From NCBI GenBank assembly GCA_920105625.2, contig OV050030.1, positions 182,656,315-182,720,314 on the forward strand: a stretch of 64,000 nucleotides of DNA, written 5' to 3'. Numbering within the stretch: position 1 is the stretch's first letter; every line of letters starts with the position of its first letter. Origin of the DNA: Clusia tigrina. Lineage: Eukaryota; Arthropoda; Insecta; Diptera; Clusiidae. The notes under the pieces were generated by a model. That model saw only the letters and a program-made list of their open reading frames with translations, searched no databases and was not told the origin of the DNA. Positions 20,414 to 58,336 of the stretch are shown piece by piece. Position numbers and translations under genes: made by a program.

Positions 20414-21435
20414 CTAAAAAAGCGTTATCACCGCTTTCGTCGACACAACAAAAAAGCTTAATGTAGTTGATGTCTGAAACGGGCCGGTAAATTCTGCTGC
20501 TTTTTTGACGTCATACCTATTGTTCCGCTTTATTTTGACTATCTCGTAAGGACCGATGTGCTTTCTTGCCAGCTTTTGTCCCGTTGTAAATTGCGTGAAC
20601 TTTATAGCTACTAAGTCCTGCATTTGATACCCATGATAGTACATGTTCGATTTTATGGTTGGAACAAAATTCTTTAAATAATTTTGACGTAAAAGCCGCG
20701 CCTTTGTCTCTGATTATGCGTAATGGATTGCCAAATATAGTGACCCTAGACTCAAAATGTTTGACAACCTCCTGCGCATCTGTTGATTTAGTAGGGTATA
20801 TCCACGTATACTTCGAAATCCCGTCTGTTTTACTCAATATGAATTTGTAGTTCTTTGCCGTTGGGTCCAGCGTACTCAAGTAATCGAAGTGCAGTGTAGT
20901 AAGTGGAGTGTCGCCCTTGTCGATGCATTGTAAAAAGTCTTCCTGCTTACCCAACTTTCTATTATGTATGATACATTCGATGCAGTTTGTGATGTACTGA
21001 TTCACCTTCTTCTGTAAATGTGGTATGAAGTAGTCTTGGCGAATCCTATGCATAGTCTTCTGCGTGCTCATGTGACCAAAACTATGAGCCTTTGCAATTA
21101 TCTCTTTCTCCATTGATATTGGCAACAACAAATCCTGCCCTTCGATTTGCTTATATATCACGTGGTTCTCCATTTTGTAATCATTATATTGATGTTGCTT
21201 TAGATTTTCCGCAACCGCAGTTAAATGCTCATCTCTTTCCTGTGCTCGACGGATTTGTGTGTTTACCTCTAACGATACAGTCATAAAAGGAAAGCGACTC
21301 AGACTATCGACGTACTTTATGCTGTTACTGGCACGAAGCTCTATTTTATAGTTGAAATCTTGAAGGTACATCAGCCATTGCACAACCTCGCGTGGGTCCT
21401 TTTTCTTTTTCGTTAAAAATGTTTATACTATTCAC
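20414..21435 (-). pseudogene. Ty3/Gypsy remnant G3: RNase H end plus integrase
   Basis: Minus strand. It starts within the RNase H/connection region (KKKKDPREVVQWLMYLQDF, about 21415) and runs on as one frame of 288 residues. SNSIKYVDSLSRFPF marks the end of RNase H. The integrase zinc finger has HSFGHMSTQKT and CIECIIHNRKLG. The core has LHFDYLST (first Asp) and IIRDKGAAFTSKLF (second Asp). After about 20590 the frame breaks and the Glu block is damaged. A second frame (20644-20414) carries LARKHIGPYEIVKIKRNNRYDV, the C-terminal domain. The 5' end of G3 is cut where the I-like LINE tail begins (about 21440). Confidence 0.82.
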
Positions 21436-23774: not shown

Positions 23775-25900
23775 ATGGGGATGCGCCAGCTGTTCTGGGA
23801 TATGACAAAAGAAGCGCAAGTATTATTGCTGATGCAGGAGCAAATTGGAGAAGCGATTGAAAAATTGGTCCGTAATTTTAAGAAAGACGGCAGGTTACGT
23901 AAGGACAATGTGTATTACCGCAAGCGAATAACACAGTTGCAAAATCTGGGGAGAGAGTTCAACAATAATCATGGGCTGTTCTTGCCTCACGCAGTTGAGT
24001 ACGGCAAGGGAAAAAATTTTGCGGAAAATTACGCAGACTACATAAATAGTCTGGTCAACGAATGGGCAGATACATTTAGTTCTGAATTAGAAGGACTAGG
24101 GCAACAAACAGTGAGTTTGGTTTCGCCAGACGAGGAAGTAAGGAACATATTGAAATCAATGCAGTCAGAGGTGGAGCTGTTTACTGGGAAAATAACAGAA
24201 GAAAAGTTGTTCAGTTTTCATAAGAAAAAAGAAGATTGGAGAGCACAAAAAGAGTATCTTGAGAATAAGGTAAAGGAACTTTCTCAGAGATTGACGGAAA
24301 CAGAGGAAGCAGCAGCGCTGTTGGAGAAGGAGTGTGCAGAATGGAAAAGAGGACGGGCGACCAATAGTAACGCACATAAAAAGGAGAGATCAAAATCAGC
24401 ATCGGCTGGATTTACACAGACAGTATTGACATTGCCTCCGGAAGTACGTTGGCCGGAATATTTAACACCAGAAGGGATAAGCCGCATGGTAAAGCCAAAA
24501 TTTTTCTCCGGGAAGTCCGATAAATAATAAAAATCAAGGATATCCGCCAAAGGAGCCGCAAGCAGTAACAGCGCAGCAAATTCCCGATACTGTGAACAGT
24601 ATTTCGCCTGTACGAACAAACGATCGAAGACTAATTAGTTTGAGTCCGTCACTGGCCAATTACCTTTCAAATCCGGGAGAAGCGAATCTGAAAAAATCCC
24701 ATGAAGATAACGTTCGAATTTTACCAGCCATAAGCAAAATAAAATTAAGAAAAATGGGCATTCTGGAAGTTGCTCATGTGGTGGAGAAGTTGGTGCCCAT
24801 GTTCTCAGGAGTCGAGTTGTATGATCTGAGAACTGAGATTAGGCGCTTCAAAGCAGGTTGTGAGCTTGCGCAACAGACTCTTCCGGAAGCGGACGGGGAA
24901 CACTTAATAGAGTGTATTAGGCAAAGATCCACAGGTGATGCGTTTGATTTACTGGTGCATAGCTCAGTAAGCACCCTGGCGGAATTTTATGCACTTTTGG
25001 ATCGGATATATTCAAAACAAAAGTCGTACGACTGTCTCGTTCGGGAAATTCAGGAATCAACTCAGAAACGCGGGGAGGAATTGAGTGCCTGGGGACGAAG
25101 GCTCCAGTCTCTGGGAAATGCTGCTGAGATGGAAGCCAACAGGCAGTTTCCAGGAAACGTTGCAGCATACAAGGCTCAAGTAGAATGAGCTATGATTTCT
25201 GTGTTCAAGGCAGGCTTGATAAATGGGGACTTAGCTAATTATACTCTTACCCTCATGCCGAGGAGCATGACAGATCTAGTGGAAGCGGTCTCTTTAGCTG
25301 AAGCAGCAACACAACAGCGAATGAGAACAGGTGGAATCTGCTGGACTGATGCGCCTGCAGAGGTAGGACCGGTACAGCAGCAGAATCCAAGTGGAGTCGG
25401 CAGATTGATGGGCCAAGTTCCGCAACAAAGAGATATAGAATTGCTGGTTGACAGGTTCCAGCCAAGGAAACCCATTGGCTCATTCTGTCATAAGCCAGGG
25501 CATACAAGGGATGAATGCGTTACACGCAAAAACACGCCCTACTGTATGAAGTACTTATGGTCATGAGGCAAGTATACAGTGCCTAGGAGACACAGAATGG
25601 ATTCGGAATAGAAGGCAGCCAGCTTCAAGGCGCCTGGATCCACCCTGAGGAACAGCAGGGGTAACTTCAGTAGACCCCGAGTTAATTCAACGGAAGGAAT
25701 TAATCAAGGAAGAAACCCTTTCAAAACTGGGAGTGGTCAGCAGCGACCAAACTGGGATAAGCAACACCAAACAGGGGTTAAGATGCTTCTCATGTGGACA
25801 GATGGGACATCGGGCAGCGGAATGCAGGGATAGACAATCCCAACAAAGGAACCAGGGAAACTTCCAGCGGCCCAGTCAAGGCCAGTAGACTGGAAAGCCA
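23775..25900 (+). pseudogene. Element A gag with coiled coil and zinc knuckles, broken
   Basis: Gag packages the element RNA. I take ATG 23775 as start. The first part (to a stop at 24527) is largely helical and charged, with a coiled-coil-like stretch at 24225-24350 (KEYLENKVKELSQRLTETEE). The second part (about 24530-25188) reads HEDNVRILPAISKIKLRKMG and TLAEFYALLDRIYSKQKSY, the capsid-like domain. After a TGA at 25186 it goes on (25192-25566) to FCHKPGHTRDEC, a knuckle whose first Cys is replaced by Ser. A second, intact knuckle, CFSCGQMGHRAAEC, is near 25789 in another frame. The stops look like decay rather than programmed frameshifts. Confidence 0.75.
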
Positions 25901-26025
25901 AGAGAAAGAAAGTAATAATTAGGCCGGCAGTACGTGTACGTAGTAATGAAGAAACTACAGTCCAGGAGAAGGAGGAGCAAGAGGCTGTCCAATATCACGA
26001 AGAGTTAGGAAGTGGATACGCTTCC

Positions 26026-26533
26026 ATGTTGCGAACAAAAGGACATTGCTTCGTTATGAGCAGGGTAGGTGATGCCTTCATCGAGATACCTTGCAAGGAA
26101 GCAGCTAGTGGAAGACTAGTGCTTTTAGTAGATGCAGGGGCGGATACCAGCCTCGTAAGATCTAGTGTTTTACGGAAAGGGCTGGATATTAATCAAATGG
26201 ATGTAAGAACGCTTAAAGGAGCGTTTGGAGGTTGCATCAGAACACTGGGATCGCTCAGAATAGGGCACAGTGGAGCTAAGGGAATGAGCTTTAGAGTGCA
26301 CGCAGTGGAATTGGATAGGGAAGGTATCAAGGCCGATGGGATAATAGGCCGCGATAATCTTTGGGGCCGCACCATACTGGATTCGCTCGAGAAACAGTTA
26401 TCATTCTATGATAATAATAAGAATATAATACTTACTCTTCAATTAAAGTCATGGCAGGAAGGAACCGTGAATAGGGTTAAGGATTTGTATGGAAGTAGTG
26501 AATGCAAGATCAACCAGAGTAGTTACTATGCAT
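26026..26533 (+). pseudogene. Element A protease (retropepsin-like), cut by element U
   Basis: Retropepsins process the polyprotein. The frame shows LVLLVDAGADTSLVRSSVL, where the expected active-site Asp-Thr-Gly is Asp-Ala-Gly. The flap and C-terminal half follow, with IKADGIIGRDNLW (the I-G-D/N block). The frame continues to 26533, where element U starts. The continuation lies at 34041 (EGVYIWDKPYVDKGKVY and so on). Either the Thr to Ala change or the insertion would inactivate it. Confidence 0.75.
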
Positions 26534-26945
26534 TGTAACGACTCAAATTTATAGCTGAGGTAAAACTCAGCGGCTCCAGGGGTCGTTACAGGAAATTACT
26601 CGGGCGTTGTATTTTTCAGTTTTCTTTATTTAATATTTATGCTTATCACTAGGCTTACACGTTACTACACAGGAATGATGGGCTTTATGAAGGCCGCTCC
26701 TGAACTTGGTGCTGTGCCGTCCTGTCTCCAGTCTCGACGGTGGTGGATTGAAAAACCACTTCCACTGGTTTGACCCGCTTTCGCCGTGGTTTTTATTGGT
26801 GCGAAGGTATTCTAAAAATTAACATTAAGTGTTGATGGGGCCGCGCAAGCTGATTGGTTACAGCACTCAAACTTCTTCGCACGCGAGTGATGCTGGCGGT
26901 CCATTATTGTGCGAGTAAAATTAATAAATAATTTTGCTCGTCACA
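26534..26945 (-). repeat. 3' LTR of element U, with about 1.06 kb deleted
   Basis: The first about 245 and last about 165 bases match the 5' LTR (32568-34040). The middle is missing, joined at GGTTTGACC/CGCTTTCGCC near 26771. It lies directly beside the polypurine tract. Confidence 0.9.
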
Positions 26946-26958
26946 TGCCCTCCCCACT
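26946..26958 (-). promoter_or_regulatory. Polypurine tract of element U
   Basis: Minus strand AGTGGGGAGGGCA, directly before the LTR start TGTGACG; primes plus-strand DNA synthesis. The Ulp-like frame ends at TGA 26961-26959, immediately upstream. Confidence 0.8.
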
Positions 26959-28132
26959 TCACCGGCGACGAGAAATGGTTATCCCGCTGCGATGTATTGT
27001 GACTCGGTATGGGTGTCTATCGTACCGGATTCGTCTGCGGGTTACCGGCTTGGCTGCCTGGCAAATTACCTCCTGGACTAGTTCCACTGGTAGGTGAGCT
27101 GTTGCTTCAGCAGTCAATTCACTGGTATCTTGGCAGACAAAATCCTTCCAGCCGGATTCTTCGGCTGGTAGTTGCGTAGCCTGGTCCTTCCTCTGGCGTT
27201 TCCAGGTGCCACTGTGCGTGTCGTCGGAGCTAGTGGAATCGCAGCGCTGGGATTCACGTGGTGTAGCTACACGCGGAACTTCTGTCTGGGTGGGCTTCCT
27301 GGTTGTTAGCTGTCGTAGTAGGTGTTCAATCTCCTTGCGTTTCTTGGGAATCTTCTCGGCCGCATATCAGATCCTTAGATATGTAGACTCCCATGTTTCC
27401 CCACGGATTGGCTCCGTAAAGGAGCTCTCCACGTTCTGCAGCACGAACACGCCACAGTCTGTCTGGTTAGTTTGCTTGGGCGAGCTCAGTGTGTGTGCCG
27501 GTATGTCACGTGCGTCATAGGGCGTGGTCGGGGCTGTTGGCAGCCGTGTCTTGCGCTCCACGTAGAGATATTGGCGCAGTACCCCTGCTTCTTCGTTGTG
27601 TGGCTTCTTCTTTAGAAAATCGAAAAATATAATGGTGGTTCCCTTTCGGCCTGACGCAAAAGCTGCTGGGAAACAGATGATGGCCACGTACCAGTGCAGG
27701 TGCTGGTTGATGGGGACAATGATAAAGTCGTACTGAAACACATCTTGCCCCTTCGTCCATCGTTTGACTCGTGTGTGCTGGTCCACCGGGGTGCCCGGCC
27801 GTTGCGTTATTTGTGAATAGAAATGAGTGGAGAACACATAAACGGGTGTCCGCTGCTTGTATGGTACGCGATTTAACTGGATCCATTTAAGATAAAAGTC
27901 CAGGATGACATCGTTCAGGAGACATCCCTCTTGAAGACACTCGATATCGCAGTTCCTGACGGCAATTCCCCCTTTACCCTGTGGATACACCACGAGCTCC
28001 ATTCTCCTCCACTTCACTCTCGCTCTCGCTACTCAGTAGGAGGGGCACTATTTGTTTTCCTTTGCCTCCATCTCCTAGCTCCAGTGGATACTCCACGATG
28101 ATTCGACTAACGCTGACGTATTGCGGTGCCAT
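26959..28132 (-). pseudogene. Ulp/SENP-like SUMO protease (peptidase C48) carried by element U
   Basis: Proteases of this family cut SUMO from its precursor or from target proteins. The core frame (28017-27367) opens VVYPQGKGGIAVRN, then DIECLQEGCLLNDVILDFYL (the LND block), RVKRWTKGQDVF and FIIVPINQHLHWYVAIICF with the catalytic His (codon at 27696). FFDFL holds the Asp (27621) and PKQTNQTDCGVFVL the Gln and Cys (27456). The layout resembles SENP6/7-type enzymes. An ATG at 28132 (MAPQYVSVSRIIVEYPLEL) opens an N-terminal part in the next frame, needing one base change near 28025 to join. Past TGA 27369-27367 the same frame stays open for about 135 further codons to TGA 26961-26959, at the polypurine tract. 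So the gene has the place of env, one frame slip and one stop. Host origin is inferred. Confidence 0.9.
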
Positions 28133-28328
28133 GACTCTATTTTTGATCTTTTTTTTCCATGGATTTTTCTTCCGAAAACTTCCTGGTGTACTTACGTTTA
28201 GTTTGGTGACGAAAAGAAAGTTTTAGCGTGCATACTCTTGCTTTTATACACTTTTTGTAAACTTTTGTAACGGTAGTCCTTTTCCTTGTTCCTTCTTCTT
28301 TATACCGTTGCGTCAGTGACCCCTACAC
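28133..28328 (-). promoter_or_regulatory. Gap between U integrase and Ulp-like gene, with TATA-like box and splice-donor-like site
   Basis: On the minus strand TATAAAAG occurs at 28248-28241 and GTAAGT at 28195-28190, both upstream of the Ulp-like ATG at 28132. Either an internal promoter or a spliced subgenomic RNA could express the gene; the sequence cannot decide. No convincing acceptor was found. Confidence 0.4.
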
Positions 28329-29544
28329 CTACTCTCGAATCCCTCCCGACAACGCTATAGGTTCGGGCCGATCATCCGGCGCGCAGAAAAGTTTTAATTC
28401 GCTGATGTGGGCGGTCCTCTCAGTTTGGTGTCCTTCCAGTGTCATCGTGACTATAACCGGCGAAATGAAATCTTTGACACGAAACGGCCCATCGTAGCGG
28501 GGCGCTAGTTTCGCGGCGAAATGGTCTGTCGCTTTTGATAGGTGGTGTTGTTTTACCAATACGAGCTGTCCTATGCTTGGCTTCCACGCTCTGCGTCTTA
28601 GGTTATGGTACCTTCGCTGGTCTTGTGCTGCCCTCTCTAGGTTTCGTTTCACTAGCTGGTATGCCTCCTTGAGCTGTTCTGAACGTTCATTAGCTGTTTG
28701 TGGTAACGCACCAGTACCCAATGTCGTTTCGTCATACAACGCTTTTGGGAGTCTTAGTTCACGTCCTTGAACTAAATATGCCGGGCTATATCCGGTCGTC
28801 TCCGAGACACTTGTATTCATGGCCAGCGTCAGTTCCGGGGCAGTTCATCCCATCGTCGCTGTTCCTTGTTGGCAAACTGAGCAATCATAGTTTTTACGGT
28901 GCGATTGGTGCGTTCAACTGCGTTCTCCTGTGGCGTATACGGTGCGGTAAACTGGTGTCGCATCCCGTAGTCTTCAGTGAATCGTCGGAACGCCCTGCTA
29001 GTAAACTGGGACCCATTATCGGAGACTAGAACCTTTAGCACCCATTGTAAAGTCTCGGTAGTGGCTTTCCGGAGTGGCGCCATTTCAGTCCACTTAGTGT
29101 ACTTATCATGGAACACTACCAGCATAGTGCTCCCATGCGCTGACCGTGGAAGAGGTGCACGAAGTCGACACACAGAACAGCCCACGGCTCCTCTGGAATC
29201 TGTGTGAGCATTTCTCCGGCCGGTTGTTGTTGGCTGCATTTATACAGCTGGCAAGGCTTGCACCTTCGTACATAGCGACTGGTATCCCGGAGGAGTCCCG
29301 GCCAATAGTAACGATTTGCGATGCACGCTATGGTCTTCCGGATGCCTAGATGCCCCGCTGTTGGTGCGTCGTGGTTCTCTCTCAAGATGCGTTCCCTAAG
29401 CGCAGTCGGCACACAGAGTTTCCAAGGAGCACAGTCCTCGTCGCCTGATCGATTTGGGATGTACCGGTAAAGCTGTCCGTTCTCGAGAGAGTAGTCTGCG
29501 AACTTGGCCGGCTCGGCCATCACCTCTGCCCTCCGCTTCTCCAC
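28329..29544 (-). pseudogene. Element U integrase
   Basis: Integrase inserts the DNA copy. Minus strand: zinc finger with HLGIRKTIACIANRYYW and CKPCQLYKC (about 29340-29240). In the core the first Asp falls in LCVDFVH (29160), near a frame change. Then come VVFHDKYTKWTEM, LVSDNGSQFTSRAF (second Asp) and PYTPQENAVERTNRTVK (Glu). Near 28825 one base change moves the frame to 28820-28329: MNTSVSETTGYSPAYLVQGR, then SIGQLVLVKQHHL and KLAPRYDGPFRVKDF, the C-terminal domain. Part of the link to RNase H (29540-29600) seems deleted. All three catalytic acids are readable. Confidence 0.88.
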
Positions 29545-31313
29545 CAGTTACAGTCCTCATCCGGCTTCTTCTACGATACTGATCCTCAAACGAGTGCTGT
29601 TGGAGTTCCAACGCCCATCGAGCTATACGTCCTGAAGGGCTTTCGATTGAGTTAAGCCACTTCAGGGACAAGTGATCCGTTATGACCGTAAATTGATAGC
29701 CTTCTAGGTATGGCCGCATCTTACGTATACCCCAGACGATGGCTAGGCACTCTTTCTCCGTAGGAGAGTAGTTTCGCTCTGCTGCATTCAGATGCCTGCT
29801 GGCATAGGATATCACCCGCTCTGTTCCTTCTATATCTTGGGTGAGCACCGCTCCCAACCCGTAATCACTAGCATCTGTCTGAAGAGTAAACTTCTGTGAA
29901 AAGTCTGGACATGCCAGGATTGGCGCCTCGGTTAGCTGCCGCTTCAACGTTTCGAAAGCCTGCTGTGTAGCGTCGTCCCACTCAAAATGCTTCCCATTCT
30001 TCAGGAGTGCAGTCAGCGGCTGTACGATTTTCGCAAAATCGGGGACAAAACGCCGGTACCACGAGGCTATTCCCAAGCAACGTCGGAGCTCTCTTACGTT
30101 CTGTGGTGGTTTTAGTTCCCGTATGGCCGCGACTTTGTCGGGATCCGGATAGATTCCCTTTTCACTCACCACGTGGCCCAAGTATTTTAATTCCTTCCGG
30201 AAAAATGCACACTTCTCAAGATTGAGTTTTAGATTAGCCTTGCGCAGTCGATGAAACACCTTCCCCAGATTTTGTTGATGCTCCTGCAGTGTTCTTCCAG
30301 TGACGATGATGTCGTCTAAGTAAGCAAACGCGTGTGGTTCCATGTCGTGGCCAATTACCTGATCTAGTGCTCGCTGGAACGTTGCTGGTGCGGAGTGTAA
30401 GCCAAATGGCATGACTCGCCACTGAAGAGTCCTCTGCCGGGTACGGTAAACGCTGTATACTCCTTACTCTTCTCCTCCATCGGGATCTGCCAATAACCGT
30501 TTTTAAGGTCCAGACTACTAATAAACTTGGCTTCGCGTAAGCGCTCCAAAATGTGCTGAATACGGGGTAATGGGTACGCATCGGGGATGGATCTCGCATT
30601 TAATTGGCGATAATCCACACACAGTCGCCACCTCCCGTCCTTCTTCCGAACTAATAAGATTGGGGCGCTATGGGGACTGTGGAAAGGTTCTATGCAGCCT
30701 TTCGCCAATAGTTCGTCTATCTCTTTGCTGATGAGCGCTTGTTGTGCCGGGTTCCTGGGGTAATACCTTTGTTTCACTGGCCTCTCGTCCTTCATCACGA
30801 TTTTATGACTAGTTAAGTTGCACACGCCTGGAGTCTCGTCAAACTTACTTAGCTCGGCAGCGAGAAATGTGTCGATCATAGCCTCCTCGGAGATAGCCTC
30901 AGATTGCGATGTGATACCCTGTGATTGCACGCCATTGGCCTGTGGTCTCAAATTCACTACTTGATCCCCACACCTTATAGTAGTTCCCTGTTTCGTCAGA
31001 AAATCTAAACCCAGAAGCAAGTCGTCGGTGGAGTCAGGCATCGTAAGTAGTTCCATTTGGCATACCGGTTCTCCAAGCCTTACATTGATCACTAGCGCCT
31101 CCGTTATGTCTCGAGTTCGTCCGTCAGCCATACGTGCTCTAATGAGTGTAGGGACAACCCTACCGGTGGTAGTACGTAGTTGACGAGCGAGCCGCTCGCT
31201 AACGAAGCTTCGTGTAGCTCCCGTGTCGATCGTTGCTGTTATTTCGTGTGCCTCTAGGACGACCGTTGCACATATACGTTGCCCATCGCTCGCAACGCGC
31301 TTATTGATGATGA
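29545..31313 (-). pseudogene. Element U pol: protease, reverse transcriptase, RNase H
   Basis: Minus strand. The protease has EITATIDTGATRSFVSERL with an intact DTG (about 31240) and LLLGLDFL. RT: VKQRYYPRNPAQQ, HSPHSAPILLVRKKDGRW, VDYRQLNARSIPDAYPLPRI and LDLKNGYWQIPM. At about 30420 one missing base moves the frame to VMPFGLHSAPATFQRA and the catalytic FAYLDDIIV (about 30320). RNase H: FTLQTDASDYGLGAVLTQ, RNYSPTEKECLAIVWGI and FTVITDHLSLKWL. After YRR (about 29570) the end of RNase H is truncated. Apart from one indel and this deletion the polyprotein is well kept. Confidence 0.9.
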
Positions 31314-32488
31314 GGCGTATTGCCGGAGGACTGCGCCGTGCCTCGCTCCTGGCGGCAGCCCTGCCCGTTTCCCCCTGATGCCCTGCAGCACTCCACTGTT
31401 CTTACATTTCTCCTTCCGCACTCCCAGCAGAACAGCAATTGCGCATTTCGGCAGTGTCGCGCAAAATGCCCCGCTTGACCGCAGCGCCTGCAAGCTGTGC
31501 GTACATCTATGTGTCCCTCTGTTCCCGCATGAGTAACTGGTGCCACTTGTCGATGGATTGTCTCACGTGGTTGTCTACGCTCGACTCGCGATTGCACAGG
31601 GTTTACTCGGTGAGTGTCACGATCACCACGTAGGCCTTCGAGATCCTCAGCCATCTCCACCAGCTCCTCCAGAGTCCCAAAATCTTTGCGGCGTACATGC
31701 CATTGGTACTCTTCCAAACTATTCCGAAGGATCCGTTCCAGTTTCTGTGCTTCGGAGTACCCAGCATGCCGCATGAGATTTTGTATTTCCACAACGTATT
31801 CCTTAAACGTCTCCAGTGGTTTTTGACGCCTTTGCCGTATCTCATCCTCTAACTTCTCCAGGTATCTGGCAGGCAAGAAGAATTTTACGAAATCCTTTCG
31901 GAACATGCTCCATGCTGTCCAGGAACGATTGTTATTGCGATACCATAGAAGCGCACGATCTTTTAGGAGTTCCGGCATGGTACGCGGCAGCATGTTCCTG
32001 TTGATCCCATACACCTCCGAAAGCTCCTCCACCCGTTCAAGAAATGCCAGCGGGTCACGGCCACCAGCGAACTTAATCGACCACTTTCTTACGTGATCAA
32101 TGACCACTGAATATGGACTGTTTCCACTCCGGGGAAAGTCCGGCGCCATACTTTGTAAGGTGTCCTGCAGTGGTCCGGGTTGTTCGCCCCTACATGGTGA
32201 TAGCGTATCTCTTCTTATGTCTATCGACACACTAGCAACCTCTGTCCGCTCGATGCCATGGGCTGTCCTGCAAGTCAAGCTTGTACCTGGGGACAAGCTT
32301 CTCATGTGATAGGCCTGCAATTCAGCCACTCGAAGCTGCTGATCCTGGCTAAATTCGGTGGCGACAACCCACTCCGCCCATCGCTTACGGAGCTCTTCAA
32401 TTGTTCCTGTTGTATCTTGCTTGAACTCAGTGCAGTAGGCCACCAATTGATCTTTCCTCAGCGAATAACCCCAACCCGTCTTCACCAT
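31301..32488 (-). pseudogene. Element U gag
   Basis: A 395-residue minus-strand frame starting MVKTGWGYSLRKDQLV, with ATG 32488 shortly after the primer site. The capsid region reads SIKFAGGRDPLAFLERVEEL, ALLWYRNNNRSWTAWSMFRK and TFKEYVVEIQNLMRHAGYS, a classic Gypsy capsid pattern. It is followed by CRRCGQAGHFARHC (zinc knuckle, 31475) and a second Cys-rich piece, FCWECGRRN. The frame ends at 31301, overlapping the protease frame (-1 relation), as is usual for Gypsy gag-pol. It looks intact or close to it. Confidence 0.88.
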
Positions 32489-32548: not shown

Positions 32549-32566
32549 GTCCCTGCTCGGGCGCCA
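32549..32566 (-). promoter_or_regulatory. Primer-binding site of element U (tRNA-Lys type)
   Basis: Minus strand TGGCGCCCGAGCAGGGAC, one base after the 5' LTR. It is one mismatch away from the 18-base complement of tRNA-Lys(UUU). Confidence 0.85.
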
Positions 32567-32567: not shown

Positions 32568-34040
32568 TGTAACTACTCAAATTTATAGCTGGGGTAAAAC
32601 TCAGCGGCTCCAGGGGTCGTTACAGGAAATTACTCGGGCGTTGTATTTTTCAGTTTTCTTTATTTAATATGTATGCCTATCACTAGGCTTACACGTTATT
32701 ACACAGGAATGATGGGCTTTATGAAGGCCGCTCCTGAACTTGGTGCTGTGCTGTCCTGTCTCCAGTCTCGACGGTGGTGGATTGAAAAACCACTTCCACC
32801 GGTTTGACTCTGAGAAGCAAGCCCTGGTTTTCTATGAAGGTGGATTGAAAAACCCAGCGTTCGTAGCAAACTCAGTTCTTCTTAATGTCTCGGTCTGTGC
32901 CTTTAGTCTTTCGTTTCAACGGTGGTGGATTGACAAACCACTTCCACCGTGTCTAACGTTGACGAACAAACTCTGGTTTATTATGAGAGTGGATTAAAGT
33001 CCAGCACTCGTAGTAAATGCAGCGCTTGTGTGTGTGTGTGTCCTTTGGTAATGTTTCCTAGTCTCGTGGCGTCTATGCGGCAACGTTCCTACAGTACTTA
33101 CTTGCGCGATGTCTTAGCAGGAAAAAGAGACCGTATGTCAGGGTGCAGGCGCTTTTATAGCCACCTGTTGAACTTCTAGTTGTTGTTCCAGTCCCGCTGG
33201 CCGTTGCTCCGACTACCGCTTCCTGTTGCTAAGGCCAAGGCATTGTTGGTGTTTTCCTCTTGACCTTAGGCGACCCTCAGCGTTTTCCTGGAAAAGGTAG
33301 GCTGTTGTCAAGCGCGTAATAGTTGCAGCGGCACGTTGTTGCTGTTGCACGCCCTGTTGTTGTTGTTGCACGCCCTGTTGTTGTTATTGTACGCATGATT
33401 TCTTTCTGCTGGTGGGTAGTATTATTTAAATTATCCACCAGCGTTTGAAAACTATTTGTGCGTTTCTCCTTTGTGTGATGTCCGCGAAGCTTGTCTGCAC
33501 AGCGATTGTTATGTCGTTCTCTCTTTCCGTTTCATTCGTTCCTCGTGTTGTTGTTGTTCTATTTCCCGAGCTAACGCCCTCGGTAAATTCTACCGAGTCG
33601 TGTTGTTGTAATTAACGACGTATTAATTGAAACCTGCTAGCAGTGTTGTTGTTGTTGTCGATCAATGCAAACGGCTGGCTTGAGTTCGCCAAGTCTGTCG
33701 GCGCATTCGTGTTGGTATAATTCACATGCAATTCCTTTTCCTTGTCTTACGCAAGCGGCTGGATTGGCTTTGCCAATGCTGCTGTTGACTTTCCGCTTGC
33801 GTAGTTGTTGGTGCAATTTGCATGTGATTTATTGATCAACGTTTATTATTTTGTGCATTTCATGCGCTCCCGCTTTCGCCGTGGTTTCTATTGGTACGAA
33901 GGTATTCTAACAATTAACATTAACTGTTGATGGGGCCGCGCAAGCTGATTGGTTACAGCACTCAAACTTCTTCGCACGCGAGTGATGCTGGCGGTCCATT
34001 ATTGTGCGAGTAAAATTAATAAATAATTTTGCTCGTCACA
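32568..34040 (-). repeat. 5' LTR of element U, full length (1473 bp)
   Basis: Bounded TGTAAC...GTCACA. The outer parts match the shortened 3' LTR. It contains a roughly 110-bp direct duplication (about 32771-32880 and 32920-33025, each starting CGGTGGTGGATTGA) and several GTTGTT runs at 33340-33660. Confidence 0.9.
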
Positions 34041-35646
34041 GCCTGTAAATACGAGACTTAGGACTGTTGTTTTGCACAAGCAGCAGCTAGCGGAGGGCGT
34101 ATATATGGGATAAACCATACGTTGACAAGGGTAAGGTGTACACTTGCGTACTCAACGCATCAGAAAAGGACTACCAGATGGATGAAGATTTTAGGCCTAA
34201 GTTCACTATTTATGATAATTTTAAATAACCGAACCACAGATTGGTTAATCAGATTAAGCAGGTAGATATAAGGAAGAGAATGGAGAGAGTGCTAGAATCA
34301 TTGAAGTTAGACCCAACCGTAAATTTGGAAGAAAAGGCGTCAATAGAGGCCATTTGTACGTCATTCCAAGACATATTTTTGCTGGAAGGAGACCAGTTGA
34401 CGTATACACCAGAGGTAGAGCATGAAATACGTACTAGAGTGGATCAACCACCAATTAACCAGAAGCAATACAGATTGCCACAAGCTCACAAAGATGAGGT
34501 AAATAGACAAGTGGAAGGAATGTAAAAGGATAACATTATTTCACCGGGTATCTCGCCTTGGAATTCACCAATAATTTTGGTGCCAAAGAAGGGAGGCGTT
34601 CAGCACCGGTTTAGGGCATTATGAGTTTAACAGAATGCCGTTTGGATTAACAGGAGCACCGGCTACCTTCCAACGGCTAATGAACCATGTGCTAACAGGC
34701 TTGCAAGGGTTAGATTGTTCTGTGTATCTCGATGATATTGTAATTTATGGGAAGAATTTGCAGCAGCAATCGCAACGCTTATGCAAGGTGCTCCAGAAAT
34801 TACGAGAACACAATTTGAAATTGAACACGGAGAAATGTCAATTTTTGCGAAGAGAGGTGGTTTATTTAGGACATCGTTGGTCAGAGGCAGGAGCACTGCC
34901 TGATCCGCAGAAGGTGGAATGCGTTAAAAATTTAGCGATTCCTAGAAATAGAAAGGAAGTGCAAGCATTCCTAGGACTAGTGAACTATTACAGAAAGTTC
35001 GTAGAAGGACTAGCCGAAATTCAAAATTTAAAGGAAATAATTAGCTCGCCACCGATTTTGGCGTACCCCGAATTTGAGCAAACTTTTTTGTTGACCACTG
35101 GTGCTAGCATTAGGGGCAGTATTGTCACAAGGGGAAGCCGGTAATGACCGACCAATAGCTTTCGCAAGCAAAGCGCTTAGTGAGACCGAGAAAAGATACT
35201 CCACAATAGAGAAGGAATTTTGAGCCATAGTGTGGGCTACGAAGAATTTTAGAGCATATCTGTTATGTCGTCCATTTAAAATATATACTGATCATCAGCC
35301 GTTGAGAGGCATAGCCAATTTGAAAGACAAAACGTCTAGGGTAGCCAGGTTCAAACACAAGTTGTCTGAGTATTATTTTGAAATCATGTACAAACCTGTG
35401 AAAAAGAATCTGAATGCGGACGCACTCAGCAGAGTACCACATGCACAGAAGGTGTCAGTAGTGCAAACGAGGGCCAAAGCAAGGTCAGATAAGGAAAAGG
35501 CCGAGAGAGTGCAAGAACATAAAACTGATGCAACAAGAAATGTTAGCAATGCGGGTTTAGATGCCAATGAACAAACAGCCAGTAATGTGGAATGGCTGGA
35601 GGATAAAAAAGATATCCAGGCCGTGTTAAAGGGTTTCCATGATTAA
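34041..35646 (+). pseudogene. Element A RT and RNase H, with internal deletions
   Basis: Continuation of the A pol after element U. It reads VDIRKRMERVLESLKLDP, KQYRLPQAHKDEVNRQ, a stop (34525), then SPWNSPIILVPKKGG. About 70 residues of the RT palm, including the first catalytic Asp block, are missing at about 34610. It resumes HYEFNRMPFGLTGAPATFQR, SVYLDDIVIYGK (about 34715) and FLGLVNYYRKFVEG. Near 35026 the connection is shortened. RNase H shows FLLTTGASI where TTDAS is expected, so the first catalytic Asp is Gly. After a shift come RYSTIEKEF, a TGA at 35221, FKIYTDHQPLRGI and NLNADALSRV. It cannot work. Confidence 0.85.
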
Positions 35647-36125
35647 CCCCAAGGTGGACACCAGGGATTCTGGAAAACCCATGACAGAATTAGACGCGTA
35701 TTCGGATGGAAAGCTATGCTCCGAGACATAAAAAAGTATGTAAAGAGTTGTCCAAAATGTCAGGCCAAGAAAAGTTCAAGGCTGACAAAGATCCCAATGG
35801 TGTTATCAGACACACCAAACCAGCCATTTGATAAAGATCATATGGATATTATAGGTATTTTACCTGAGACAGTTTCGGGAAATAAATACATGTGGACGCT
35901 CCAAGATGATTTCTCAAAGTATATGGCGTGCGTGGCTATACCCGATGCTGAAGCAGGTACGGTAGCCAAAGCATTATTTGATGAAATTATAGCGCGATAC
36001 AACATACCTAAGGTCTTGATAACCGACAATGGTTCAAATTTTGTATCAAAACTATTCTCAGAAACGTGTAAGCTGCTGGGAATCAAAAAATTGCATATAA
36101 CAACATATCATCCACAGGCAAATGG
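35647..36125 (+). pseudogene. Element A integrase, first part
   Basis: After a stop at 35644 the zinc-finger region (GGHQGFWKTHDRIRRVF, CPKCQAKKSS) leads into the core with FDKDHMDIIGILPET (first Asp) and VLITDNGSNFVSKLFSETC (second Asp, about 36020). The reading is cut in YHPQANG at 36125 by the LOA-like LINE and resumes at 41862. A2 has the same protein, cut about 130 bases earlier by another LOA-like LINE. Confidence 0.88.
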
Positions 36126-38091: not shown

Positions 38092-41000
38092 AGCCTTCAG
38101 CTTTCGAAAACTGCCTCGGCAGCCCTGCTTCTCCGCCTCTTGGATATAGGGGTGGAGCTCATTCTCGTCCAAGAACCTTGGGTCATAAATGACCGGGTTT
38201 CTGGACTCAATGCATACGGATGTCGTATGGTATATATCGAGGATCAAGGTAAACCAAGATCCTGCATTCTGGTAAAAAACAGCGTTAACGCTCTTTTAGT
38301 CCCTAGATTCAGTGACAAAGACAATGTTGCCATGGTCATTGAAATGGGTCCACGGACTTTCTGGATCTCCTCGAACTACATGGCTCATGACTATGGCGAC
38401 TCCCCGCCACCAGACATACTGAAGCAAATGGTTGCTGTAGCCCACCAGAAACAGATTCCGGTAATTATCGGCGCCGATGCCAATGCCCATCACGAAATAT
38501 GGAGCAGCTCCGGCACAAATGATCGAGGTGAGTGTCTTTTCGACTTTATCATTTCAAATAACTTAGGCATTGCTAACCGGGGAAATGAGCCGACCTTCCT
38601 TACATCCGTCAGGAAGGAAGTGCTTGACATCACCCTCGTCAGCGATAACTACTCCAACATGATACGCAATTGGTTCGTCTCACAGGAATGCTCCTTTTCG
38701 GACCACTGCTATATCACCTTTGACATTGACTTGAGGGAGACTACAGGCAATACAGAATCTCTTAAACCAGTCAATAGAAAAAACACGAACTGGCCTTTTT
38801 CCGGCTCAAACTGGGGTCATGCTTAGCAACGACTCCCCCTATTATCCACAACTGTCCCGACATTGATCAGGCGGTCGACGATCTGACCACAGCTTTTAAA
38901 AAAGCCACTCATATTTCTTGCATCACTCCCGAACCACGGGGCAAACCTAAACCTCCGTGGTGGAACTCGGAAATTGCAATTCTTCGCAAAACTTGTAGAA
39001 TGCTTTTCAACAAAGCTAAAGTTACAGCTGATTGGGCCCCTTTCAAAAATAAACAAAAAGAGTTGAAATACGCCATTAGGCGAGGGAAACGAGCGTCATG
39101 GAGGGAATTTTGCGAAAGCATTGAATCGACGTCCGAGGCTAGCCGTCTATTTAAAATTCTCCACTCCTCTAACAAAGCCCTTGACTGTATCCAAAAACAA
39201 GATGGCAGCTGGACTCACTCAAGCGCCGAAACCCTTGATATCCTGCTAGACACCCACTTCCCAGGGAGTTTAGCCTCAGCGGATCAAACACTCTACCAGG
39301 TGGGGCAGGTTTCCCATGATAGCCTCCCCACATTCCAAGTGACAAAAAGTCACCTTGAGTGGTCCATTCAAACCTTTAAGCCATACAATTCCCCCGGACC
39401 GGACGGCATCATTCCTGCCGATATCCAAAATGGGGAAGAGATTATCCTTCCATGGCTGCTTCAAATATATAATGCAAGCCTCAGATTGCAATACATTCCC
39501 TTACGCTGGCGCACGGCTCGGGTCGTCTTCATACCAAAAGTTGGGAAGGCCTCGCACACCAAACCTAAGGATTACAGACCCATAAGTCTAACATCCTTTC
39601 TTCTTAAGGTTCTAGAAAGAGCTCTTGACCTACATATCAGGACATCGATCAACCCTTCTCTTCTCTCTGTATCTCAACACGCTTACTCTAAAGGCAAATC
39701 GGTTGAAACAGCACTTCATTCTCTCATTTCCCAAGTTGACAAATCCTTGGCGTACAAGGAATTCACACTTGCCATATTTCTGGACATCGAGGGAGCATTC
39801 CACAATGTATGCCCCAACGCTGTCATCTCCGCACTCTATAATCTTAACCTGAATTCAGGTCTTCTTAAATTTATAGAGCTTCTACTAAAATCTAGGATCA
39901 TCACTTCCACGATCGGCAGTGCCCAATCCAGGAGGGTGGTTAACAGGGGCACGCCACAAGGGGGTGTTTTATCACCCCTCCTCTGGAACCTGGCAGTTAA
40001 CACACTACTGGTGAGATTGGAATCTACTGGATGCAAAGTGATAGCCTATGCGGACGACATAGCAATCGCGGCATCCGGCAAATTCCCCCAAACACTTTCC
40101 GAAAAACTGAACTATTCACTCTCTATTGTGTTGAACTGGTGTCGCAAATTCGAACTTGGGGTTAACCCATCCAAAACCGAGACTATGCTTTTCACTAGGA
40201 AGTACAAAATTCCAAAGTTTACAATGCCTAGTCTAAACGGCACTCCGCTCTCTTTGAGCACACACGTTAAGTACTTAGGCCTGATTCTCGACCCAAAGCT
40301 TAATTGGAAAGCCAATCTAGCTGAGAGGGCACGTAAGGCAACATGCGCTATATACTGCTGTAAAAGAGCAGTTGGTGCACGATGGGGACTTCGTCCTCGA
40401 GTCGTGCTCTGGCTCTACACGGCCATCGTTGAACCAAACCTGTTATACGGGTCGGTCTTCTGGTGGCAAGCTCTCGAAAAAGCCTGTAATATCAAACCCC
40501 TTGATAAAATCAGAAGATCCATTGCTCTACTGATCACTGGCGCTCTTCGTAGCACACCTACGAAAGCCCTTTTTCCCATGCTGCATTGGCTCCCCTCGGG
40601 GATCCTGGTTAAGCAACAAGCCAAGCTGACAGCGATTAGACTTAATGCTCTTTCGCACTGGCGCATAACCCTGACAGGCCATGCTTCAATTCTGAATCAG
40701 GACCCACCTGTCCCCAACTTTATCGATTATATATCGGTCTATCCCGATTTGAACAGGGAATTCGACCTCACTATTCCAAGTCGAAGCGACTGGACCTCAG
40801 AAAACCGAATCGTCGGTGAAACAGTCGAAATCTACACCGACGGTTCCAAGCTTGGAGGTAGAGTCGGCAGCGGTATTTATTCCGACAAGCTGGACTTAAA
40901 CATCTCCCTACGTCTCCCAGACCATTGCAGCGTTTTTCAAGCTGAGGTCATGGCCATTTACCACGCAGCCAAATGGATGCTGAGTAGTGATATCGGCGCA

Positions 41001-41672
41001 GTCGACATATCTATCTTCTCAGACAGCCAGGCCGCCATTAAATCTCTTTTTGGCTCCACGGCCACATCAAGACTAGCTCATGAATGTCGAACATCTTTAA
41101 ATGAGCTCGCAAGTTACTCTCGGGTGCACCTAGTCTGGGTTCCCGGACACAGCGAAATCCCGGGAAACTGCGAGGCGGACGAGCTTGCCAAGGCAGGCAC
41201 GCTAATGCACGACATTCACCCCTCTGTAAACATCGGCATTCCACTGGCAACAGCCAAGCTCGAAATCAAACGGAAATATCTGGCTGACGCCTACAAATCC
41301 TGGGCTAACGAGGAATCCTGCCACACGGCTAGACTAACTTGGGCAAGCATGGACAAAAACAGAACCAATCAACTTCTTCGACTTGATCGCGTATCACTGT
41401 CGACAACTGTGTCGGTTTTGACCGGCCACTGCATAATGGGACAGCACGCAGAAAGACTGGCCCTACCCTCAAATGACTTTTGCCGAGGCTGTGGCTTCGA
41501 GGAGGAGGACGAGACGGTTTTCCACCTCTTATGCCACTTCCCATCCTTGAGCAGAAGAAGAATTCGCACTTTTGGTGCCCCATTTCTTACAAGCCTCACA
41601 GAGCTGTCATCCATTAATATTAGGGACATAGCCAGGTTCATCAAAGTATCAGGATGGTTTCCTGAAACATGA
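38092..41672 (+). pseudogene. LINE 2 ORF2: endonuclease, RT, RNase H and terminal zinc finger; one frameshift
   Basis: Begins SLQLSKTASAALLLRLL right after the ORF1 stop, with no own ATG visible. Endonuclease: LILVQEPWVIN, PVIIGADANAHHEIWSSSGT and CSFSDHCYITFDID. One shift at about 38800-38825 leads into the long frame (open through 39000-41672). RT: SPGPDGIIPADIQ, DYRPISLTSFLLKVLER, LDIEGAFHNV, RGTPQGGVLSPLLWN and AYADDIAIAASG (40045). RNase H has all four acids: EIYTDGSKLGG, CSVFQAEVMAIYHA, IFSDSQAAIKSL and GNCEADELAKAG. Near the end CRGCGFEEEDETVFHLLC is a CCHC-like motif. With one indel it is close to intact. Confidence 0.9.
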
Positions 41673-41861: not shown

Positions 41862-42390
41862 CACGTTGGAACGTAGTCACCGGCCTCTGGCCGACTACTT
41901 GCGCAGTTTTGCCAAGGAAGACGACTCGAATTGGGATCAATGGTTGACCACTGCAAAGCATGTACACAATAATACTGTGCATGTATCAACGAAGCAAATT
42001 CCGTTTAGAACAATCTACGGGTTTGATTTCAACATGCCAGCGAATTTGAAGCGCAAATATGCGCCAATGTACAATGCTGATGACCCCAATAAAGTGCAAA
42101 AATATCAGTTACAGCTATCGCACGAATTGGTCAGAGAAAACCAGGAATGTGCTAAACGGGTAGCGAGGGAAGCCTATAGCAAGGTACTAAATCCAGTAAT
42201 CTTTCATGTGGGTGATCAAGTACTCATGAAGAATCAGGCTAGGAGAAACAGATTCTCACCTGTGTGGATAGGCCCGTATTCAGTAGCAGAAATCCGCAGC
42301 CCAGTTACAACAGTCGTAACGATTAAGAGCAAGAATAAAAAGCTACATAATAATTTGTTGAAATTATTCCATACAAGGCAACACAATTAG
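41862..42390 (+). pseudogene. Element A integrase, second part
   Basis: Resumes with GTLERSHRPLADYLRSFAKE, holding the Glu of the DDE triad, then WDQWLTTAKHVHNNTVH, VLNPVIFHVGDQVLMKNQ and RFSPVWIGPYSVAEIRS, the C-terminal domain. Stop at 42388-42390. With the first part (to 36125) and one copy of the 12-bp duplication the integrase frame is continuous. All three catalytic acids are kept, unlike in A2. Confidence 0.88.
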
Positions 42391-44690
42391 AGACATGTGT
42401 TGGCAGTGTTTTACAAGTGCAAACACGAAATAATAACGTAATCAAACTGATATCGGGTATGTATATCAAATAGCTCGGTTCTGACGTTCAAAGTCAAGGC
42501 AAACAGAAATGTGTCAATTAAACGCTGGCGAGTATAATTGACGTAAGAAAAATGTGGTTATTAGGCACTATGGCCGAACGAAGCACAGTAGAGGAAAATA
42601 TATTAAATAATAAAAAACGGGTTCATTGGACAAAATTTTAAAAAATAAAATTTTAAGACAGTCGTGGGTAAGTAATTTAAACAAAACACACAGCGGTTAT
42701 TGAAATGAAATACGATGCGTAAGCAGTAGCGCCGGCACCGTTGGTGAAGTAAGTATATACTCGTATGTATGTAGCTGTATAATGTACAGAATGAATGTAC
42801 GAAGGCATATTTAAGCAAGTAAGTAATTTTGTTAATAGGAATGGGTATGGCCATATAAGCAAGTATGTTGGGACATGTGATTAGGAATTGGGAATTTGCA
42901 GATACTGCAGCAGGCTATATGTAAATATACATAGGTTTTTACTGTTTATTGATTAGGAAATTAGCGTATGGAAAATTGATGAAATGTATAGGTTGAGATA
43001 TAAAAAAAATATGTATAGGTTAATTGGGAAAATAACGTTAGCAATTAATTCTAACTAATTTAAATCGCTTCGAATGTATGTATATAACCGAATATACTAG
43101 CTAATTACAGGGTGGAAAATACAATCGTTAATGGATATATACATACCAGTTTATTATTAAATTTAAAGCCAATAAAATGAGTGAATGCAATGAAAAATTG
43201 GGTAATACAATTGACAAAGTTTTGACATAAACGGGTTTATCTTATTTAATCTTATTTTAGTCAGGTGGCAAAGCAATTTGCTGGAAATTTAAATGAGTGA
43301 CAACTCATATTTGAAAGTAAAGCATGAAAAAGTTAAACAAAATAGTCTGATACCCTATAAAATACAAGTGGACGTAAGTTGAATGATATAGCATTCAACG
43401 GTAGTATAAGCATATTAATTATAAGTGTTATAATTAATTATTTAAAAATCCGAATTTATGCTAAATAGGAAAATTGTCCACAAGAGTATATATGGTATAC
43501 GAGTATATATGGTATATTTATTTAATTATAATATGTTGTTGAAGTTGGTTTGTTAAATTAACTTGTGAAATGTTAGATTAAACTAAAATGTTAACAAGAA
43601 AACTAAGAAAATGAGGATAAGGATTCAGCTCTGATGATATGAACCGAAGCAGGAAGTTCCAGGAACAGCGTATTTCGGAAGACGCTGCAGGCTAAGGGAC
43701 CAACGTAGTATTCGGAAATATGTGTTTTTGAAAAACAGGGATTTCTGGCAGCTATCCAAGGTTTGGGAATTCGGTTGTGACCGCAAGGATGCCAACATAT
43801 TGGATTGGGGATGAATGGCGACGGATTTATTTTTCTTTGCGTAACGGCATATGGCCGCAACATTTGAACGCGTTGTGCAAGAGTTATTGACAAGCAACGA
43901 AAAATAAACAAGTTTCCTTGCGGAGTCATGTTTTGCATTGGACAGTTTTATATTACAATGTCCACCCAGTGTATCACAATCTCAGCAGAATCGATTTTGG
44001 ATAAGTTGAAGATGGGTAAAAGCTTAAGGTGGGTGACTGAAACCACCACCAAATATAATAAGCAGAAGAAATTTGGCTCGCGGAAGTTAATTGCTTCATT
44101 GAAGTATATGTCCAATCTAGAGTATGAACATACGAAATGTGATTTACATATGAAATATGATTTAATACAAGAGGACACAGAGACTGGTACCCGATCAGAG
44201 TACACAGATTACGTCATTAAGCGTGTATCTCAGGGAAATACCGATAGTCTACACATCGAAGGCAACGAAAGAAACTTCAATTATGAGAAAGCTAAAGAAA
44301 AACACTTCCACCATAGAACGCATTGCTGCAAAGTAAGAAGGAGTATTGTAATCTTTCATGTATTCCAAATGCTTTTTACAAGCTGAACACTATAAACAGA
44401 GAATGAAAAGAAGAAGGCTACTACAAGCGAAATTTTAATGGTAACCCAAAATGCCAGTCTAGAATATCATACATACCGGCCGAGAAAGAAGGGAGGGGTA
44501 TGCAGAGTTCATCGAGGGATTTCACTCCGACAACGACGGCCGGCATCCAAATCAGCAGAAAGCAGAGGACGCAGTATATTATAAGATCTGAAATATAGAA
44601 TTGAATTGTATTATCACTAGTTGTTTAAGATTGTTTTTACGCCAGTGAGAAAAGAGTCAATAAAAGACCAAATTTAAAAAGGCGAATTTA

Positions 44691-52084: not shown

Positions 52085-52526
52085 GAATGACGAATAATGC
52101 AAACAGCTAGCCAGTAGTTTGGAATGGCTGGAGAATGAAAAAGATATCCAGGCAGTATTGGAGGCTTTCCATGATTCATGTTTCGGTGGAAACCAGGGAT
52201 CTTGGAAAGCCTACGAGAGAATCAGACCGGTATACGCCTGGAAAGGCTCAGAGACATAAAAAAATATATAAATAGTTGCCCAAAATGTCAGACCAATAAG
52301 AGTTCGTGGCTCACAAAGATGCCAATGGTGTTAACTGATATACCGAAACAACCATTTGATAAAGTCCACATGGATATTGTAGGTATTTTACGTGATACAG
52401 TTTCGGGAAATAAATTCATCCTTACGTTTCAGTATGACTTTTCTAAATACATTGTGTGCGTGGCTATACCCGATGCTGAAGCAAGTACTGTAGCCAAGGC
52501 ATTCTTTAACGAAATTCTGGCACGAT
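52085..52526 (+). pseudogene. A2 integrase, first part
   Basis: Aligns with A from SSxEWLE and DIQAVL onward. Frame 52178-52526 holds CPKCQTNKSSWLTKMPMVL and FDKVHMDIVGILRDTVSG (first Asp). It is cut after the ARY codons by LINE 3, within the 9-bp duplication TGGCACGAT (52518-52526). The zinc-finger part upstream is frameshifted. The jump from primer site to integrase removed gag, protease, RT and RNase H. Confidence 0.82.
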
Positions 52527-58103: not shown

Positions 58104-58336
58104 AGACATGTGTTGACTTTGTTTTACAAAAGGGAACAGAAGAAGAACAACAAAAATAAGCTTTTATCACGTACGTATATCAAACATAACAGTTCCGGCT
58201 TCCAAAATCAATGGCAACAGAAGTGTGCCAAGTAAACTCGGGCTATAAAAAATGATGTAATATAAGTTTGCTCATTACGTACTATAGCCGAATGAAGCGC
58301 AGTGAAGCAAATAGGAGAAAAATATTTTTTAAATAA
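58104..58336 (+). other. 3' region of A2 up to the Helitron
   Basis: Aligns with 42391-42610 of element A (AGACATGTGTTG near the start, AGCCGAATGAAGC against GGCCGAACGAAGC). Ends at the Helitron insertion point. Confidence 0.8.

What the first reader, a model, noticed from the sequence alone, without database searches (positions are those of the whole stretch)
26959..28132. SUMO-protease-like gene in the env position of an LTR retrotransposon
Element U carries, between its integrase stop (28329) and its polypurine tract (26946-26958), a frame with the full Ulp/SENP active-site set: His in HLHW, Asp in FFDFL, and Gln and Cys in QTNQTDCG. It lies in the same orientation as pol, inside both LTRs, and its last codon touches the polypurine tract. 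It is as well kept as pol (one slip, one stop over about 390 codons), so it was probably part of the replicating element, not a late insertion. Ulp domains are known in some DNA transposons; I do not recall one described in a fly LTR element. A retroelement that removes SUMO could act on SUMO-dependent silencing of transposons (inference).
Basis: partly seen in the sequence, partly recalled or inferred. Interest (0 to 1): 0.93.

Follow-up and report, generated by a model that had tools for sequence, protein, structure and literature searches.

The report
Retrotransposons carrying a swappable SUMO protease
A large group of jumping genes in this animal's genome carries, where an envelope gene would sit, an intact-looking gene for an enzyme of the kind that strips the SUMO tag from proteins, with signs of its own promoter and of exchange between elements as a unit, which may help the elements escape host silencing.

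Summary
Window 28032-27367 (-) is a peptidase C48 domain (Pfam E 1.2e-19; best solved relative SENP7, 1.3e-34) between integrase and 3' LTR of a Ty3/Gypsy-type element. In the host genome (1.21 Gb, unnamed) all 150 scored rows match; 57 rows (56 frames) are open for 380 aa or more. In 18 of 20 copies fetched, the gene directly follows integrase. Catalytic His, Asp, Gln and Cys are kept in 21 of 21 copies, although other subfamilies are 39-56% identical to U; dN<dS in 6 of 6 pairs. Three of three copies checked have exact 4-bp target duplications and 99.4-99.9% LTR identity.

New here: a promoter-like module before the gene in 5 of 7 subfamily representatives; a SUMO-interaction-like N-terminal motif in 7 of 11 frames (4 of 7 subfamilies); and a cassette swap, elements 98-100% identical over most of gag-pol carrying proteases with saturated synonymous divergence. 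Most likely it is a self-expressed, nuclear, de-SUMOylating counter-silencing enzyme: the anatomy is shown, the activity and target are inferred. Listings from an open-access library showed no LTR element with such a gene.

The parts
32568..34040 (-). 5' LTR of element U (about 1.47 kb, TGTGACG...GTTACA) with TATA at 33159 and GTAAGT at 33101
32549..32566 (-). primer binding site (tRNA-Lys type by recall, not tested)
   Evidence: sequence; same motif directly after the 5' LTR in L032, L046, L049
31304..32527 (-). gag (Retrotrans_gag; weak zinc-knuckle matches below cut-off)
28329..31401 (-). pol: aspartic protease, RT, RNase H, integrase; broken into several frames in this copy
28133..28328 (-). 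spacer with promoter-like module: CCGTTA box, TATAAAAG at 28248, GTAAGT at 28195; the arrangement recurs in other subfamilies
28013..28132 (-). start of ORF3 in another frame, with SIM-like IVPLLLSSESESEVEE
27367..28032 (-). ORF3 peptidase C48 domain (SENP6/7-Ulp2 type by best match), catalytic H, D, Q, C present; ends at an in-frame stop of this copy
26959..27366 (-). ORF3 C-terminal tail with basic end; matched in 19 of 20 fetched copies (29-98% per stretch), not in L050
26946..26958 (-). polypurine tract directly after the ORF3 stop
26534..26945 (-). 3' LTR, internally deleted

Best explanation
Element U belongs to a large, recently active group of Ty3/Gypsy-type LTR retrotransposons whose third gene is a SENP6/7 (Ulp2)-type SUMO protease of about 375-411 aa. 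SHOWN: position, domain, kept catalytic residues, purifying selection, transposition as one unit with the LTRs, and exchange between elements of a segment made of integrase C-terminus, spacer and ORF3. SUPPORTED BY PATTERN: its own TATA promoter-like module, and an N-terminal SUMO-interaction-like motif in about half of the subfamilies. INFERRED: the protein is made from its own transcript, enters the nucleus and removes SUMO (chains) from factors needed for silencing of the element (in flies the Piwi-SFiNX/Su(var)2-10 heterochromatin pathway needs SUMOylation), so that the element is expressed. Fast divergence and cassette exchange would then reflect a contest with changing host targets.
For: C48 in 8 of 8 ORF3 frames scanned; best solved relative SENP7 in 3 of 3 queries; catalytic residues 21 of 21; dN<dS, p 0.025 or less in 6 of 6 pairs, some sharing a copy; ORF3 next to integrase in 18 of 20 copies; exact 4-bp TSD in 3 of 3 copies checked and LTR identity 99.4-99.9%; promoter-like module in 5 of 7 subfamily representatives against 0.005 expected; SIM-like motif in 7 of 11 frames against 0.61 expected; cassette swap. 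[quoted passage not shown] Lower SUMOylation is proposed to derepress Ty1 in yeast (PMC8585004, passages). Ulp1-carrying VANDAL (KIU) elements escape silencing in Arabidopsis (PMC13317346, passages). U keeps matches to its own aspartic protease, so Gag-Pol cleavage does not need C48.
Against: No activity, transcript, localisation or target data. The promoter-like module is missing in L050 and only TATA is present in L047; it was seen in the LTR side of U, L032, L034 and L049 but not of L042, L044, L047, L048 or L050 (an AT-rich match in L046 is probably chance). Whole-LTR against spacer similarity in U alone was not significant (20 of 200 shuffles reach it). The SIM rule is not met in L042, L043, L049, L050. 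Motif rules were set after looking at sequences. No relative among 42 and 131 protein candidates. In the yeast paper Ty1 rises in mutants of the SUMO protease Ulp1, read by its authors as lost SUMOylation, and for KIU elements the function of the Ulp1 domain is called unknown, so both precedents are indirect. Whether related elements without ORF3 exist here could not be asked. Host lineage and its silencing pathway are not established.
Confidence: 0.55

Rival explanations
1. The protease serves the element's own particle or replication complex: it removes SUMO or another ubiquitin-like protein from Gag, RT or integrase, or trims the polyprotein, rather than acting on host silencing.
For: Cysteine proteases of the Ulp1 type occur in nematode non-LTR elements NeSL and Utopia (PMC4640811, passages) and in Polinton-type elements (PMC10175614, passages). 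The swapped segment includes the integrase C-terminus, so the two parts may work together.
Against: An aspartic protease is present upstream. ORF3 is a separate frame, mostly with its own promoter-like module, and SIM-like motifs point to SUMO conjugates.
Confidence: 0.25
2. The enzyme is specific for another modifier (NEDD8, ubiquitin or a divergent SUMO), and the benefit is blocking turnover of element proteins.
For: C48 includes members with other specificities (recalled). ORF3 domains diverge to 39% identity to U.
Against: Best match is SENP7 in 3 of 3 queries.
Confidence: 0.12
3. The gene helps spread between cells or nuclei in place of env, for example by altering nuclear entry.
For: It occupies the env position; ORF3 types of unknown role occur in bdelloid elements (PMC5408684, passages).
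Against: Only C48 was found in 8 of 8 frames at E 0.01 or less. Membrane segments were not looked for with a dedicated tool.
Confidence: 0.06
4. A passenger: a host protease gene or retrocopy caught once, without function, or a host gene family lying near elements.
For: One strong C48 match (172.6 bits, C3:177602926-177603456) may be a host gene, so a host donor may exist.
Against: Same site in several subfamilies, catalytic residues 21 of 21, dN<dS, unbroken frames in young copies, TSDs outside the LTRs.
Confidence: 0.02

Closest known systems
KIU (Kaonashi) VANDAL / MULE DNA transposons of plants with a Ulp1 domain
   Same: A mobile element carries a SUMO-protease-type domain, and KIU elements escape silencing (PMC13317346, passages).
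   Different: DNA transposons in plants; the domain is in VANC-type genes, its function is called unknown and the reported effect is on DNA methylation. Here an LTR retrotransposon, a third ORF with a SENP6/7-type domain, and a host that is probably an insect (inference).
Ginger1 DNA transposons with Ulp1 or OTU domain
   Same: Gypsy-like integrase next to a Ulp1 domain (PMC2836005, passages).
   Different: There it is the C-terminal domain of a cut-and-paste transposase; here a separate ORF after gag-pol inside LTRs.
NeSL / Utopia non-LTR retrotransposons of nematodes
   Same: Retrotransposons with a Ulp1-like cysteine protease (PMC4640811, passages).
   Different: N-terminal domain of the protein of a non-LTR element; here a separate third gene in an LTR element.
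CryptonF and CryptonS elements of oomycetes with a C48 peptidase
   Same: C48 peptidase encoded besides the mobility enzyme; in some CryptonS elements as an additional protein (PMC3212892, passages).
   Different: Tyrosine-recombinase DNA transposons.
Bdelloid rotifer LTR retrotransposons with enzymatic ORF3 (GDSL, DEDDy)
   Same: Captured enzyme gene in the env position; the DEDDy type was acquired at least twice (PMC5408684, abstract and passages).
   Different: Different enzymes; the terms Ulp and SUMO do not occur in that paper.
Maize Grande accessory gene
   Same: Accessory gene in the 3' internal region, said to encode a nuclear protein and to use its own promoter (title seen only in reference lists).
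   Different: Plant element (recall); no protease known to me.

Membership tests
Peptidase C48 (Ulp/SENP), SENP6/7-Ulp2 branch | Pfam PF02902 over its cut-off | tested here: met
   71.4 bits for U; 8 of 8 other ORF3 frames
Peptidase C48 (Ulp/SENP), SENP6/7-Ulp2 branch | Catalytic His-Asp-Cys with oxyanion Gln | tested here: met
   21 of 21 copies
Peptidase C48 (Ulp/SENP), SENP6/7-Ulp2 branch | Closer to SENP6/7 than to SENP1/2 or Ulp1 | tested here: met
   by score only: SENP7 122.9 bits, Ulp2 68.9, SENP2 64.0; SENP7 also first; no tree was made
Peptidase C48 (Ulp/SENP), SENP6/7-Ulp2 branch | Cleaves SUMO conjugates or chains | not testable with these tools
   needs a bench assay
Ty3/Gypsy LTR retrotransposon | gag, then PR-RT-RNase H-integrase order, inside LTRs | tested here: met
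Ty3/Gypsy LTR retrotransposon | Short target-site duplication outside the LTRs | tested here: met
   exact 4 bp in 3 of 3 copies checked; U itself GCAT/GCCT, one mismatch
Ty3/Gypsy LTR retrotransposon | Membership of a named clade (e.g. Osvaldo/Ulysses, mdg3, gypsy) | not tested
   no named reference pol set was compared
Env-bearing insect retroviruses (errantiviruses) | Third gene is a fusion glycoprotein | tested here: not met
   by Pfam only: just C48 found in ORF3 at E 0.01 or less
KIU/VANDAL antisilencing elements | DNA transposon of VANDAL/MULE type | tested here: not met
   LTR element with RT; a VANC gene was not searched for beyond the Pfam scans

The most novel reading that the evidence does not exclude
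These LTR retrotransposons carry a self-promoted counter-defence cassette, a SIM-guided SENP6/7-type SUMO protease, that disarms SUMO-dependent silencing, and subfamilies compete by exchanging whole cassettes, as retroviruses exchange env.
Probability: 0.45. Interest if true: 0.94.

Novelty: new variant of a known kind. Interest (0 to 1): 0.88.

Why it matters
SUMO is required for piRNA-guided heterochromatic silencing of transposons in flies (PMC8733420, passages). Counter-defence genes are known for viruses and a few plant transposons, but I know of none for animal LTR retrotransposons (recall). A conserved, fast-diverging, exchanged de-SUMOylase in a young and abundant family gives a direct handle on whether retrotransposons fight SUMO-dependent silencing, and on which SUMO targets matter.

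Tried and rejected
Late insertion into U: no direct repeat beyond chance (200 of 200 shuffles reach it) and no significant inverted repeat (68 of 200) around the gene, and the gene is at the same site in other copies. Host gene copies near elements: rejected by LTRs, TSDs and position. Splicing from the LTR to an acceptor before ORF3: by my simple rule no pyrimidine-rich acceptor in 8 of 13 spacers; L042, L043 and L049 have one candidate each, and the spacers measured for L034 and L036 include coding sequence. So splicing is not excluded, but an own promoter fits better. LTR-to-spacer similarity in U alone: not significant. Folding: the single-sequence model of P0001 had mean pLDDT 34 and was not used. 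NCBIfam: no match. Continuation of the C48 domain across the stop, which I thought I saw from recall, was not detected by sequence search. Viral and prokaryotic collections: no C48 relative; pol relatives there were absent or distant (38-45%). A bacterial promoter scan is irrelevant here.

Full report
What the window holds. On the minus strand, element U runs from its 5' LTR (34040-32568) to an internally deleted 3' LTR (26945-26534). Pfam finds gag, aspartic protease, RT, RNase H and integrase in order. The frame 28032-27367 matches Peptidase_C48 at E 1.2e-19 and, among solved structures, SENP7 first (1.3e-34), then Ulp2 (4.1e-18) and SENP2 (1.2e-16). The rest of the frame (27366-26959) has no Pfam or PDB match. 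U probably sits inside another LTR element of the + strand: a weak protease match below cut-off lies at 25834-26538, RT matches follow from about 34.6 kb, and the flanks GCAT and GCCT differ in one base. The retained LTR parts differ at 12 of 416 positions. Simulated neutral decay at that level gives about 0.4 new stops in the C48 piece and 0.25 in the tail, so one stop is unremarkable for a frame that was open on arrival.

Copies in the genome. The genome search was busy for eighteen tries and then answered. It scored 150 of 571 candidates and all 150 matched at E 1e-3 or better, the window's own copy included. By hand count 57 of 150 rows (56 distinct frames) have an open frame of at least 380 aa and no stop. 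Besides the window copy, 15 rows are 86-93% identical to U; some shorter rows are 66-84%; most of the rest are 40-59%. A PF02902 search scored 150 of 343 candidates, all over the cut-off. Its best row (172.6 bits, 206 aa) stands apart and may be a host gene; it was not examined. That search also shows a further group with frames of 437-444 aa.

Anatomy of copies. I fetched 20 stretches, chosen because they carry C48. In 18 of 20 the C48 match starts 304-380 nt after the integrase match; in L035 the two are 2.5 kb apart and L040 has no pol match. 17 of 20 have RT as well as integrase upstream. Direct repeats of 100 bases or more lie on both sides in 15 of 20, some partial or within arrays; those of L040 look like tandem repeats and are not counted. 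Frames from the first ATG are 375-411 aa in 12 of 20 (L032, L033, L039, L040, L042, L044-L050); in L034 an upstream ATG lengthens the frame, and L031, L035-L038, L041 and L043 are shorter or broken. The three copies I checked for it (L032, L046, L049) have exact 4-bp duplications (ATTG, CCGT, ATTT) and 1, 6 and 9 LTR mismatches in 1494, 1784 (with one gap) and 1583 positions; in all three the ORF3 stop abuts the polypurine tract. So the gene moves with the element, and recently did.

Selection. The catalytic His, Asp, Gln and Cys are kept in 21 of 21 copies, U included; the Trp after His in 19 of 21. Synonymous change exceeds amino-acid change in 6 of 6 tested pairs, p from 0.025 to 2.4e-30; some pairs share a copy. 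Of 22 pairs computed, C48 dN/dS is 0.28-0.49 in U-subfamily pairs, 0.26 in L042-L043, 0.10 and 0.30 in L044 with L046 and L045, 0.08 in L047-L048 and 0.17 in L044-L049; the rest have saturated synonymous sites. RT gives 0.07-0.35 where it can be computed, except 0.60 and 0.90 in the two L044 pairs, which have very few changes.

Cassette exchange. RT of L042 against L044 has dN 0.003 and dS 0.040, while C48 has dN 0.338 and saturated dS. In 250-base windows L042 and L044 are 98-100% identical from about 2.35 to 5.85 kb, 45-75% from there to about 8.1 kb, and 95-98% beyond; L043 against L046 gives the same picture (96-100%, then 50-77% after a 91% window, then 96% and 71%). BLAST places the return of high identity in L042 at 8012. 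The segment holds the integrase C-terminus, the spacer and ORF3. Both states occur at more than one locus among the fetched copies (L042, L043; L044, L045, L046), so a misassembly is unlikely. The RT tree groups L042-L046 (100/100), while the C48 tree puts L044-L046 with L049 (93/94) and L042-L043 apart (18 of 21 copies used, those with a long RT match; RT bootstrap not settled; L036 is a long outlier in the RT tree). C48 identity to U (39-56%) is far below RT identity (76-84%) in other subfamilies; exchange as well as fast change may cause that.

Promoter-like module and N-terminus. In U the spacer before ORF3 has TATAAAAG (28248) and GTAAGT (28195), as the LTR has (33159, 33101). On seven subfamily representatives, TATA followed by GTAAGT 51-56 nt later (allowed 40-70) was found in 5 of 7, with a CCGTTA or CCGTTT box 20-36 nt before the TATA; dinucleotide shuffles give 0.005 of 7 for the pair; L047 has only TATA and L050 neither. 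Distance and box were set after looking, but the pair was first noticed in U alone. The same pair is found on the LTR side of U, L032, L034 and L049, not of L042, L044, L047, L048 or L050; one AT-rich match in L046 is probably chance. A pyrimidine-rich stretch lies where a start site would fall (inspection). The GTAAGT may be a splice donor; its role is open. N-terminal hydrophobic-acidic SIM-like motifs meet my rule in 7 of 11 frames (0.61 expected), that is 4 of 7 subfamilies; L042, L043, L049 and L050 fail it.

What it does. The anatomy argues for a trans-acting enzyme, in most subfamilies made from its own transcript. U keeps its aspartic protease, so a maturation role is not needed. [quoted passage not shown] Panx function has been tied to SUMO (PMC13195609, outline and abstract); lower SUMOylation is proposed to raise Ty1 expression in yeast, though seen in mutants of a SUMO protease (PMC8585004, passages). 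A de-SUMOylating counter-silencing enzyme is therefore my best reading. Every step from enzyme activity onward, nuclear entry included, is inference.

Prior art. Ulp1-type domains are reported in MULE/KIU, Ginger1, Crypton and nematode NeSL/Utopia elements (passages), and captured enzymes in the ORF3 position in bdelloid LTR elements. In insect Metaviridae, env as third gene is reported for 17 lineages (PMC12992720, passages). Nine searches on LTR retrotransposons with Ulp1, C48, SUMO, Osvaldo, Ulysses or related terms showed no LTR retrotransposon with a SUMO protease in titles, abstract starts or the passages I opened; several listings were cut (for example 25 of 268 papers, 30 of 169). 'Peptidase C48' with 'LTR retrotransposon' gave 0 papers. 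The library is open-access only, and repeat databases were not searchable, so a described consensus elsewhere is possible. No protein relative was found among 42 and 131 candidates, although the same database holds many pol relatives, fly ones included (2742 of 5212 candidates at E 1e-20, 120 listed).

Limits. Host species unknown; element clade not assigned; copies examined were chosen by having C48; pol copies without ORF3 not searched; host SENP not compared; no expression or activity data.

Noticed in passing
G000 C1:377923353, 377930890, 377938427; C4:120392143-120419566; L034/L038; L047; L050: Head-to-tail arrays of related elements spaced about 6.7-7.5 kb, with matches in LTR-internal-LTR order.
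   Followed up: partly
window 26774 junction, compared with 33869-32808: The 3' LTR of U lacks the stretch that holds the TATA and start region in the 5' LTR, with no obvious repeat at the junction (by eye).
   Followed up: no
window 25834-26538 and 34575-35144 (+): U seems to interrupt the PR-RT linker of another Gypsy-like LTR element.
   Followed up: partly
G000 C4:57027689, C2:13775466, C3:17590037 and others: A group of 437-444-aa C48 frames with nearly equal scores on several contigs, possibly another young subfamily.
   Followed up: no
G000 C3:177602926-177603456: Highest PF02902 score in the genome (172.6 bits), a candidate host Ulp1/SENP gene.
   Followed up: no
window 38092-41669, 63280-63939, 20520-21422: The window is dense in transposons: a non-LTR element (endonuclease, RT, RNase H), a Helitron-like N-terminal domain, and another integrase on the minus strand.
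   Followed up: no
window 41902-42600 / 57619-58313 and 35577-35998 / 52109-52526: Pairs of repeats about 80% identical within the window.
   Followed up: no
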